From the NCBI GenBank assembly GCA_030620115.1, contig JAUXFG010000131.1, forward strand, positions 1-10,753: a stretch of 10,753 nucleotides of DNA, given 5' to 3'. Position 1 is the stretch's first letter. Every line of letters begins with the position of its first letter. Below are positions 4,100-6,664 of the stretch, piece by piece. Made by a program: the position numbers and the translations under genes. Source of the DNA: Candidatus Fermentibacterota bacterium. Its GTDB lineage: Bacteria; JAFGKV01. The notes under the pieces were generated by a model, which saw only the letters and a program-made list of their open reading frames with translations, searched no databases and had not been told where the DNA came from.

Positions 4100-4299
4100 T
4101 AACCCGGACTTCTAACCGGCTTTTGTGGCGAAGCTGCCGAGATGGTTCTGGCTGCGAGGCTTGCGGCAGAGGACCCCGCAGGCGTATCCTCTGTCCGCCA
4201 GCTGGCGGATCGAGGAGGCTGATGGAGTCCGCAGCCGGCGGAAAGCAGGCAGTGCCATATCGGCTGCTGCAGCCGAAAGTTGGTGAGAAGTTCGGGTTA
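4100..4299. mobile_element. MITE-like element, copy 1 (about 200 bp, terminal inverted repeats)
   Basis: The left end TAACCCGGACTTCTAACC (4100-4117) and right end GGTGAGAAGTTCGGGTTA (4282-4299) are inverted repeats with two mismatches in 18. Between them are blocks shared with copy 2 (5088-5301) in the same order and orientation: GCCGAGATGGTTCTG, a 25-base identical block at 4169-4193, GGAGGCTGA-GGAG, and the last about 50 bases. At two interior positions copy 1 carries TCCGCC...GGCGGA palindromic modules (4194-4209, 4228-4242) where copy 2 has different sequence. It has no coding capacity. I found no clear target-site duplication for this copy. Confidence 0.75.
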
Positions 4300-4381
4300 G
4301 CATCCATCCTTTCAGACTATCTCCATATTAGAGGAGGTTCATGATGAAATGCGTCGCCGAGTCGGGCCGACGAGATCAGTC

Positions 4382-4410
4382 TTGACAGGCTGATGATAAT
4401 ACGGTATAGT
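4382..4410 (+). promoter_or_regulatory. Sigma-70-type promoter of the AbrB/PIN toxin-antitoxin cassette
   Basis: TTGACA at 4382-4387 is a perfect -35 box. TATAGT at 4405-4410 is a good -10 box, and the spacing is exactly 17 bp. Transcription would start near 4417, leaving a leader of about 39 bases before the antitoxin ATG. It lies inside the interval bounded by the two MITE-like elements, so the cassette carries its own promoter. Confidence 0.8.
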
Positions 4411-4416
4411 TGAATT

Positions 4417-4437
4417 GCTGAAATGCAGTATTTCGGC
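4417..4437. promoter_or_regulatory. Inverted repeat, candidate operator of the cassette
   Basis: GCTGAAAT (4417-4424) and ATTTCGGC (4430-4437) are inverted arms of 8 bases with one mismatch, separated by 5 bases, located at the predicted transcription start. AbrB/MazE-type antitoxins commonly repress their own promoters by binding such palindromes, so this is a plausible operator. The binding itself is inferred. Confidence 0.45.
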
Positions 4438-4455
4438 TTTCCTGGAGGAAGCGAC

Positions 4456-4692
4456 ATGCCAACCACGATACAGATCAATGAACGGGGTAATCTCACTCTG
4501 CCGAAAGCAATGCGCAAGGCTTTGGGCATTGACAAGGGTGGGGTGATGATAGCCATTCTGTCGGCAGACGGAGTTGTTCTCAAACCGGCCATGTCCTTTC
4601 CAATCGAGATCTACACAAGTGAGCGCGTGGCTGAATTTGACAATGCAGATGAAGAACTTCGTCGGCATCTCAAGCGAAAGGCGAAATGCTGA
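4456..4692 (+). CDS. AbrB/MazE-like (SpoVT-AbrB domain) antitoxin
   Basis: A 78-residue antitoxin for the PIN toxin that starts immediately after it. Residues 4-45 form the swapped-hairpin DNA-binding domain: TTIQINERGNLTLPKAMRKALGI is the classic AbrB pattern (x-I-x-x-x-G-x-x-x-L/I-P-K-x-x-R-x-x-L-G-I), followed by the second strand pair IAILSADGVVLKPA. The tail (about 50-78, IEIYTSERVAEFDNADEELR and a basic end) is the typical acidic-then-basic toxin-binding helix. I chose ATG 4456 because GGAGG (4444-4448) sits 7 bases upstream and the domain begins there; an earlier in-frame ATG at 4423 would add 11 residues and lacks a ribosome site. The stop TGA is followed without a gap by the toxin ATG. 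Expression probably comes from the promoter at 4382-4410. Confidence 0.93.
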   Translation: MPTTIQINERGNLTLPKAMRKALGIDKGGVMIAILSADGVVLKPAMSFPIEIYTSERVAEFDNADEELRRHLKRKAKC

Positions 4693-5094
4693 ATGCGCGT
4701 GTTCTTGGATGCCAACATTCTCTTTTCGGCGAGCGCGAAGCAAAGCGCCACACGGCAGCTACTCGATAGGCTGTTGGTGCATACGGAAGTGTTGATCAAC
4801 GCTCATGTGCTGGAAGAAGCGCGGAGGAGCTTGTTGAAAAAACGCCCAGAGCAAGTACATGAGCTGCGAGGTTTGCAGAGTCACATGACGATGACCGGGG
4901 CATTTGCCTCAGATCACCTCGTCGACTTGCCAGAGGAGGATGTGCCCGTTCTTGCCGCTGCCGTTGGCGCCAGATGTACTCATCTATGGACCAGCGATAA
5001 GCGCCATTTCGGCCAATTCTACGGCAAACTCATACGCGGCGTTAAGGTTGTCTCGAGCATCATGCTCTTAGAGGAGTTGATGGAACTGGGTTAG
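4693..5094 (+). CDS. PIN-domain toxin (COG1569-like), 3' end rewritten by element insertion
   Basis: A 133-residue PIN-family toxin, a predicted metal-dependent ribonuclease. Acidic active-site positions are visible: D6 in VFLDANILFSA, E41/E42 in HVLEEARRSL, D83 in LPEEDVPVLAAAV and D102 in WTSDKRHFG. The arrangement VLEEARR...LP-x-x-D-x-P-V-L-A-A-A...T-S-D-K-R-H-F-G is that of the putative toxin PIN family. Translation is coupled to the antitoxin (TGA then ATG with no gap). The last codons are odd: GAA CTG GGT TAG, where the GGTTAG belongs to the left end of the inverted-repeat element at 5088. Joining across the GAACT direct repeats that flank the element would replace the terminal Gly with TRERSVA and a TAA at 5329-5331. 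The catalytic core is untouched, so the toxin is probably still active. Confidence 0.92.
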   Translation: MRVFLDANILFSASAKQSATRQLLDRLLVHTEVLINAHVLEEARRSLLKKRPEQVHELRGLQSHMTMTGAFASDHLVDLPEEDVPVLAAAVGARCTHLWTSDKRHFGQFYGKLIRGVKVVSSIMLLEELMELG

Positions 5095-5306
5095 CCCGGA
5101 CTTCTCACCGGGTTTCGAAGCGAAACGGCCGAGATGGTTCTGAATGCGAGGCTTGCGAATGAGGACCCCGCAGGCGTATCCTCTGCGAGGAGCCTGTGCT
5201 GAGCGTCAGCGAAGTATCTGGAGGCTGACGGAGCGTAACGAAGCAGGCAGTACCATATCGACTGCTGCAGCCGAAAGCTGGTGAGAAGTTCGGGCTAACC
5301 CGAACT
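5083..5306. mobile_element. MITE-like element, copy 2 (5088-5301) with 5-bp direct repeats
   Basis: The outer 22 bases at each end (5088-5109 and 5280-5301) are inverted repeats with one mismatch; the core is TTAGCCCGGACTTCTCACC against GGTGAGAAGTTCGGGCTAA. The bases immediately outside are GAACT on both sides (5083-5087 and 5302-5306), as expected for a 5-bp target-site duplication. The interior is collinear with copy 1 (4100-4299), including an identical 25-base block (5161-5185). The middle differs and carries GAGCG...CGAAG modules (5201-5214, 5231-5243). It has no coding capacity, so it would need a transposase supplied elsewhere. The left end provides the stop codon of the PIN toxin. The right end lies 22 bp before the aminotransferase start. 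Confidence 0.78.
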
Positions 5307-5323
5307 GACGAGGGAGCGTTCTG

Positions 5324-6664
5324 TTGCGTAAAGAGTTTCTACCATTCTCGCTACCAACCATCGGTGATGAAGAGATTGCCGAGGTGGTGGATACCCTGAA
5401 ATCAGGGTGGATCACTACCGGCCCGAAAGCCAAGCTGTTCGAAGAACGATTTGCTCGTTACGTGGGATCGGGCCAGGCCCTGGCGGTGAGTTCATGCACC
5501 GCGGGCCTTCATCTTGCCATGACGGTTCTGGGAATCGGCCCCAAGGACGAGGTCATTGTTCCAAGCATGACATTCTGTTCCACGATCAACGAGATCGTTC
5601 ATCTTGGTGCACGGCCTGTCATGGTTGAGATCAATGATGATTTCAATATCTCTCCCCACGCTATTCAAGCAGCCATCAGTCCGCGAACCAAAGCAATCTT
5701 GCCCGTCCATTACGGTGGGCAAGCATGTGACCTCGAAGCCATCTATGCCATCGCGGCAAGGCATAGCTTGGCCATTGTCGAGGATGCCGCGCATGCGGTG
5801 GGCGCCGAATACAGAGGCGTGAAGATCGGCTCCGATGCGCTTGGGGAGAAAGCAGGCAGAGGACAGAGGGAAGATGTCATTGGTGATCAGTCATTGGTCA
5901 TGAGCGAAGCCCGACGAAGTCACGCAGGGCGCGGGCAAGGAATTGCCCCCGCATCTCCCAATTCAGAATTAAGAATTGAGAACTCAACATTGAGAAAACC
6001 GTTCCCTCATGTCACGGTTTTCTCGTTCTATGCCAACAAGAATATGACCACCGGTGAGGGAGGAATGATCACCACGGTTGATGAGGGCCTCATGGAGGAT
6101 ATGAGGGTTTTGTCACTGCATGGCATGAGCCGCGACGCATGGAAGCGCCATGCCGGTACCGGTTCTTGGTACTACGAGGTGGTTTCCCCGGGGTACAAGT
6201 ACAATATCAGCGATATCCTTGCCGCTTTGGGCATCCATCAGATCGAGAAGCTGGATGGTTTCATTGAGTCACGTACTCGGATCGCAAAGAGGTATGATAA
6301 GGCGTTTGCAGGCATGCCCGAGATGGAAACGCCGATTGTGCACAAAGACCGAAAGCATGCCTATCACCTCTATGTGATCCGTCTAAACCTTGACCGGCTC
6401 ACAATTGACCGAGCGCAGTTCATCGAAGAACTCCGAGCCCGTAACATCGGCTCCAGCGTTCATTTCGTCCCCGTCCACATGCACCCATTCTACAAAGAAC
6501 GATACGGCTACAATTCTGGCGATTTTTCGACAACTGAGTCGCTCTATCAACAGATCATCTCCCTCCCCCTCTTCCCCCGCATGACCAATCAAGACATGGA
6601 CGACGTCATCGCCGCAGTAAAAGACATCGTAGCTAAGAAGAATGTGGAATCTGGGAATTTATAA
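5324..6664 (+). CDS. DegT/DnrJ/EryC1/StrS (ArnB-type) sugar aminotransferase with internal insertion
   Basis: A PLP-dependent nucleotide-sugar aminotransferase that should transaminate the 4-keto sugar made by the dehydratase at 1902. Typical family features are GWITTGPK (28-35), SSCTAGLHLA (56-65), DEVIVPSMTF (75-84), VEDAAHAVGAEY (152-163, Asp154 pairing with the PLP ring nitrogen) and FSFYANKNMTTGEGG (233-247) with the Schiff-base Lys239. HFVPVH (380-385) and the SLPLFPRM ending region follow. The start is TTG 5324 with GAGGGAG (5310-5316) seven bases upstream. At 446 residues it is longer than the usual 370-390. The excess is one block of roughly 57 residues (171-228) between KIGS and HVTVFSFY, where relatives have only a few residues; it reads like translated intergenic repeat. 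The last residues (VESGNL) come from an AATCTG-type repeat. Substrate (PglE-, PseC- or ArnB-like) cannot be decided here. Confidence 0.95.
   Translation: MRKEFLPFSLPTIGDEEIAEVVDTLKSGWITTGPKAKLFEERFARYVGSGQALAVSSCTAGLHLAMTVLGIGPKDEVIVPSMTFCSTINEIVHLGARPVMVEINDDFNISPHAIQAAISPRTKAILPVHYGGQACDLEAIYAIAARHSLAIVEDAAHAVGAEYRGVKIGSDALGEKAGRGQREDVIGDQSLVMSEARRSHAGRGQGIAPASPNSELRIENSTLRKPFPHVTVFSFYANKNMTTGEGGMITTVDEGLMEDMRVLSLHGMSRDAWKRHAGTGSWYYEVVSPGYKYNISDILAALGIHQIEKLDGFIESRTRIAKRYDKAFAGMPEMETPIVHKDRKHAYHLYVIRLNLDRLTIDRAQFIEELRARNIGSSVHFVPVHMHPFYKERYGYNSGDFSTTESLYQQIISLPLFPRMTNQDMDDVIAAVKDIVAKKNVESGNL
5834..6010 (+). repeat. Repeat-like in-frame insertion inside the aminotransferase gene
   Basis: About 177 bp with no counterpart in the family. 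It contains two tandem 14-bp units (GTCATTGGTGATCA at 5876-5889, GTCATTGGTCATGA at 5890-5903), a GAGCG...CGAAG module (5902-5919) like those in MITE copy 2, and ATTCAGAATTAAGAATTGAG (5961-5980), which looks like intergenic repeat rather than coding DNA. It keeps the frame open and contains no stop. The encoded segment is polar and low in hydrophobic residues, as expected of a surface loop. The boundaries are set by protein conservation and are accurate to a few codons. Confidence 0.65.

What the first reader, a model, noticed from the sequence alone, without database searches (positions are those of the whole stretch)
5083..5331. Inverted-repeat element inserted in the 3' end of a PIN toxin, supplying its stop codon
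Seen directly: 22-bp terminal inverted repeats with one mismatch at 5088-5109 and 5280-5301, with GAACT immediately outside each end. The toxin's last codons are GAA CTG GGT TAG, and the final GGT TAG needs element bases. Removing the element plus one GAACT gives GAA CTG ACG AGG GAG CGT TCT GTT GCG TAA, a 139-residue toxin whose end would overlap the aminotransferase TTG start by 8 bases. The element therefore seems to have rewritten a toxin C-terminus and separated it from the next gene. The insertion history is an inference.
Basis: partly seen in the sequence, partly recalled or inferred. Interest (0 to 1): 0.8.

Follow-up and report, generated by a model that had tools for sequence, protein, structure and literature searches.

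The report
Mobile hairpin repeat beside toxin stop
A common non-coding mobile hairpin, one of roughly 160 in this genome, sits exactly at the stop codon of a bacterial toxin-antitoxin gene, and relatives show that the protein's end was kept rather than rewritten, so this is an ordinary insertion.

Summary
The inverted-repeat element is real. 22-bp ends with one mismatch lie at 5088-5109 and 5280-5301, with GAACT outside each. The toxin stop TAG (5092-5094) lies on the element's edge. The element belongs to a 50-360 bp, transposase-less hairpin (MITE-like) family with 320 copies of its end sequence in the genome and none in a reversed control.

The insertion story does not hold. Across 78 collected copies the shared boundary is TA on each side, usually within YTAR. 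GAACT is unique to this copy, about what chance gives. A copy nested in a repeat with known empty versions doubles only TA or GTAG. Toxin homologues without the element end at the same place: 33 of 42 are within four residues, and the nearest relative's remnant has its stop at the identical codon. None has a TRERSVA-like tail or a DegT neighbour.

I conclude that the element landed in the toxin's existing stop codon. Host TA plus the element's first base (G or A) spells a stop, so the protein was preserved; a hypE copy shows the same (ends PRIC). Stop codons are hit no more often than other YTAR sites. Pneumococcal BOX repeats behave similarly. The sister genus's capD-DegT locus has neither toxin pair nor elements.

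The parts
5094..5295 (+). MITE-like hairpin element, family core R-CCCG...CGGG-Y, 202 bp
   Evidence: family alignment and flank statistics; fold
5092..5093 (.). left TA, inferred host target copy; with G5094 forms the toxin stop TAG
   Evidence: TA on the left in 66 of 78 copies
5296..5297 (.). right TA, inferred host target copy, followed by A
   Evidence: TA on the right in 66 of 78 copies, on both sides in 56
5083..5087 (+).
   Evidence: 1 of 78 copies has a 5-bp same-offset repeat, 0.6 expected after shuffling
5302..5306 (+).
   Evidence: as above
4102..4297 (+). second copy of the same element family, same orientation, upstream of the toxin-antitoxin pair, flanked by TA 4100-4101 and 4298-4299
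   Evidence: (77% identity)
4382..4410 (+). sigma-70-like promoter of the toxin-antitoxin pair (TTGACA-17-TATAGT), consensus match only
4456..4692 (+). MazE/AbrB-type antitoxin
   Evidence: Pfam PF04014
4693..5094 (+). PIN-domain toxin, 133 aa
   Evidence: PIN families at E about 1e-4, just under the cut-offs; 67 homologous loci, 66 with an AbrB-type neighbour
5310..5316 (+). GAGGGAG, likely ribosome-binding site of the DegT gene, retained outside the element
   Evidence: sequence; inference
5324..6664 (+). DegT/DnrJ/EryC1 aminotransferase, TTG start
   Evidence: Pfam PF01041; orthologue in G002

Best explanation
The element is one of roughly 160 copies of a transposase-less, hairpin-forming element (MITE-like) moved in trans by an unidentified transposase into YTAR sites with duplication of TA. 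Here it inserted into the TA of the toxin's own stop codon. Because the element begins with G or A, TA plus that base is TAG or TAA, so the stop was regenerated at the same codon and the toxin kept its natural C-terminus. What changed is the DNA between the toxin and the aminotransferase gene, now about 200 bp longer and able to form a long hairpin in the transcript. Shown: the family, its ends, the TA boundary, and unchanged toxin length among homologues. Inferred: that this copy duplicated TA, the trans-acting transposase, and any effect of the hairpin on expression.
For: Family size and ends. TA at both boundaries in 56 of 78 copies and in nearly all copies with perfect ends; no recurring longer repeat. 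Nested copy L016 against five empty host repeats: only GTAG, containing TA, is doubled. Toxin ends: 33 of 42 homologues lie within 4 residues of the window's end, the closest homologue (57%) is 3 residues shorter, and the sister-genus remnant L037 stops at the identical codon. Parallel case: hypE (L003) ends PRIC directly before the element's TAG, exactly where four solved HypE chains end. Peptidase M16, PhoU and EutN genes ending on an element edge also match solved homologues over nearly their whole length. The right-hand TA is followed by A, also a stop triplet. Hairpin fold.
Against: No orthologous DNA-level empty site exists: the sister genus lacks the toxin pair at this locus. GGG/CCC next to the ends and the GAACT(G) repeat are unexplained by the TA model except as chance (my estimate roughly 1-5% per copy). 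Position-wise matches between the outer tetranucleotides are slightly above shuffles (P 0.01-0.05), so a 4-bp duplication in some copies is not excluded. The L037 homologue is a truncated remnant. No transposase with matching ends was found.
Confidence: 0.85

Rival explanations
1. One reading: insertion with a 5-bp GAACT duplication cut off a 139-residue toxin that overlapped the aminotransferase start, giving it a new C-terminus.
For: GAACT lies on both sides of this copy, and 5 of 42 homologues have tails as long as the model needs.
Against: No other copy has a 5-bp repeat at equal offset of this kind and 0.6 copies are expected by chance. Homologues mostly end where the window's toxin ends. 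None has the tail or a DegT neighbour. The longer frame would run through the DegT ribosome-binding site (inference).
Confidence: 0.06
2. The toxin-antitoxin pair and the two flanking element copies (about 4100-5298) arrived together as one composite unit bounded by the outermost inverted ends.
For: Two same-family copies flank the pair in the same orientation. The orthologous capD-DegT locus in the sister genus lacks the pair and both copies.
Against: Element copies are abundant and often cluster around unrelated genes. The two copies here are only 77% identical. No second copy of the composite was found. The sister locus carries other DNA in the interval, so loss is equally possible.
Confidence: 0.1
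3. The element is a host-recruited 3' hairpin that shields the toxin mRNA or limits read-through into the aminotransferase gene.
For: Long stable hairpin directly after the stop; same arrangement after several other genes.
Against: No T-run terminator at the element. Insertion at stops is no more frequent than for background YTAR sites (7 of 69 against 25 of 178). The covariation term of the consensus fold is nil.
Confidence: 0.1

Closest known systems
RUP of Streptococcus pneumoniae (thought to be mobilised by IS630-Spn1)
   Same: Short, non-autonomous, about a hundred copies, inverted ends, TA target (PMC2229807)
   Different: Unrelated sequence as far as known; here no IS630-type (PF13358) transposase was found in the genome
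BOX elements of Streptococcus pneumoniae
   Same: Supply the stop codon of 36 annotated genes without strong evidence of truncation (PMC3049150); they also cluster and nest
   Different: BOX has a modular boxA/B/C architecture; ends and target differ
Correia elements / NEMIS of Neisseria and Nezha of cyanobacteria
   Same: Short hairpin MITEs with inverted ends (PMC2229807, PMC3049150); TA target from own knowledge
   Different: No sequence relation tested; different hosts
QMITE2 of Coxiella burnetii
   Same: MITE at the 3' end of a gene (enhC) that alters or abuts the stop (PMC5896051)
   Different: That insertion extends the protein by 33 residues in one strain; here the length is kept

Membership tests
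MITE (miniature inverted-repeat transposable element) | Short, no transposase gene, inverted terminal repeats | tested here: met
   78 collected copies with paired ends, nearly all 50-360 bp; this copy about 202 bp
MITE (miniature inverted-repeat transposable element) | Many dispersed copies in one genome | tested here: met
   320 end matches, 0 in control; not found in the relatives searched apart from short partial matches in one
MITE (miniature inverted-repeat transposable element) | Target-site duplication | tested here: met
   TA both sides in 56 of 78 copies; one nested copy with empty versions. The extent, 2 or 4 bp, is not fully fixed
MITE (miniature inverted-repeat transposable element) | Ends match an autonomous transposon in the host | tested here: inconclusive
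   No PF13358 or PF13586 match; PF01609 and weak PF13701 hits without matching paired ends; assembly incomplete and not all end copies fetched
IS630/Tc1-mariner-derived MITE | IS630-type transposase partner in the genome | tested here: not met
   No PF13358 match in the genome
IS630/Tc1-mariner-derived MITE | TA target duplication | tested here: met
AbrB/MazE-PIN toxin-antitoxin pair (host module) | AbrB/MazE-type antitoxin followed by PIN toxin | tested here: met
   PF04014 above cut-off; PIN families at E about 1e-4, just below cut-offs; 66 of 67 homologous loci encode both

The most novel reading that the evidence does not exclude
The family evolves by exchanging whole hairpin arms for tiny dispersed palindromes (TCCCGCGTCGGACGCGGGA, TCCGCCAGCTGGCGGA) that replace, rather than simply interrupt, existing stem-loops at several fixed positions, so that the mobile hairpin is a mosaic of interchangeable palindromic cassettes moved by an unknown mechanism.
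Probability: 0.3. Interest if true: 0.45.

Novelty: new member of a known kind. Interest (0 to 1): 0.25.

Why it matters
It gives a clear example of how a mobile element with a YTAR/TA target and a purine first base can land in stop codons without harm, because the stop is rebuilt. That matters for annotation: a stop codon lying inside a repeat is not by itself evidence that the gene's end was rewritten. The biology is otherwise ordinary and has a published parallel in pneumococcal BOX repeats.

Tried and rejected
(1) 5-bp GAACT duplication: not a family feature. (2) 4-bp YTAR duplication: 17 of 78 equal tetranucleotides against 11 expected and only 6 of 26 copies with perfect ends, so not the main rule, but not excluded for some copies. 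(3) Preference for stop codons: not found. (4) Autonomous partner: searches for PF13358, PF01609, PF13586 and PF13701 in the genome and a search for paired ends 0.45-3.5 kb apart in the fetched loci gave no transposase with these ends. (5) Family in other genomes: 59 relatives searched, only short partial matches in one distant genome, G007; no exact end pattern in viral contigs. (6) TIR-like strings near other PIN loci (L075, L115): two loci at up to 2 mismatches, about the number expected by chance by my own estimate.

Full report
Observation. The 220-nt stretch folds into one long hairpin of -112.3 kcal/mol, z -7.8.

What it is. A DNA search of the window's own genome (4.1 Mb, 296 contigs, unnamed) gave 52 matches, including a second copy in this same window at 4100-4299, upstream of the antitoxin. 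The end pattern YTARCCCGRACTTCTCACC occurs 320 times with at most one mismatch, and never in the reversed control. Two ends per copy gives roughly 160 copies. It was not found in 59 relatives, including both other genomes of the same family, apart from short partial matches in one distant genome, nor in viral contigs. Copies run from about 50 to over 360 bp, carry no transposase gene, and are palindromic throughout. This is a MITE-like family.

Where the element ends. I collected 78 distinct copies with paired ends. Going outward from CCCG, the next base is a purine, then A, then T, then usually a pyrimidine; beyond that there is no conservation. TA stands on both sides in 56 of 78 copies. A direct repeat of 5 bp at equal offset occurs in one copy of 78, this one, with 0.6 expected when left and right flanks are paired at random. 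Copy L016 is inserted into another repeat of which five empty versions are in hand; only GTAG, containing TA, is doubled. Equal tetranucleotides (a 4-bp duplication) occur in 17 of 78 copies against 11 expected (P 0.035) and in only 6 of the 26 copies with perfect ends. So TA, in a YTAR context, is the best reading, and a 4-bp duplication in some copies stays open.

Was the toxin rewritten? A scan of 84,980 species genomes gave 67 loci encoding a relative, the best 57% identical; 66 of the 67 also encode an AbrB-type antitoxin. Of 42 aligned homologues, 33 end within four residues of the window's toxin, five are as long as the 139-residue model or longer, and none has a TRERSVA-like tail. None of the 67 loci has DegT beside it. 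In the sister genus (G002) a truncated remnant is 57% identical over residues 69-133 and stops at the identical codon, with no element after it. The C-terminus was therefore most likely kept.

How it works. If TA is the host's duplicated target and the element starts with G or A, then TA plus the first element base is TAG or TAA whatever the site. An insertion into the TA of a stop codon rebuilds that stop. In this copy the triplet at the right-hand TA (TAA, 5296-5298) is also a stop, as the model expects. The same is seen at other genes. The hypE gene of L003 ends in PRIC followed directly by the element's TAG, exactly where four solved HypE chains end; in HypE the terminal Cys is the functional residue (own knowledge). 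An M16 peptidase, a PhoU and a EutN-type protein also end on an element edge and match solved homologues over nearly their full length. This is tolerance, not targeting: 7 of 69 elements lie at stops of called genes against 25 of 178 background YTAR sites outside genes, Fisher P 0.53.

The locus. In G002 the same gene order exists, capD, DegT, a YhcB-like gene and wzc, at about 54% protein identity for the first two, with neither the toxin pair nor any element. So the pair and both element copies were gained here or lost there. They may have arrived as a composite, but element copies are common and cluster around unrelated genes, so I give that 0.1. The DegT gene keeps a likely ribosome-binding site (GAGGGAG, 5310-5316) outside the element, and the toxin pair has its own promoter-like site at 4382-4410.

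Comparison with what is known. RUP (PMC2229807) is the nearest kind: short, non-autonomous, TA-targeting. BOX repeats supply the stop codon of 36 pneumococcal genes with no strong evidence of truncation (PMC3049150), which is the closest precedent for the stop codon. QMITE2 in Coxiella shows the opposite outcome, an extension (PMC5896051). The transposase that moves this family was not found: PF13358 and PF13586 are absent, PF01609 gives eight matches without paired ends, and PF13701 only a weak sub-threshold match. I therefore do not file it under IS630.

Verdict. A real, ordinary new MITE-like family; insertion into a stop codon that kept the protein. Interest 0.25.

Noticed in passing
5846-6012: The DegT aminotransferase has an in-frame insert of about 50 residues between GSDALG and TVFSFYANKN that is absent from its sister-genus orthologue (matches 2-176 and 229-439 nearly abut). 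The insert DNA has only three short partial matches elsewhere in the genome, two of them near contig ends.
   Followed up: partly
L003, L017, L020, L021, L023, L026, L027, L028, L044, L056: Two tiny palindromes, TCCCGCGTCGGACGCGGGA and TCCGCCAGCTGGCGGA, replace stem-loops at several fixed positions inside different element copies; in the fetched loci 29 and 14 copies lie inside elements and 4 and 6 outside.
   Followed up: partly
591-1306: A second toxin-antitoxin-like pair (small gene without a Pfam match plus PIN toxin, PF01850) lies on the other side of capD in the same 10.7-kb window.
   Followed up: no
L025 1319, L047 2742, L152 991: Three element-in-element nests share the same insertion point inside the host copy (GAATG/GCTTGCG), suggesting that a nested composite was itself copied.
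   Followed up: no
L178 1549: This copy is flanked by a 6-bp direct repeat GCAAAT at offset 6, probably chance.
   Followed up: no
1-211: An ORF at the window start contains SHCEEGSDEAIS, a string that I remember from dispersed bacterial repeats.
   Followed up: no
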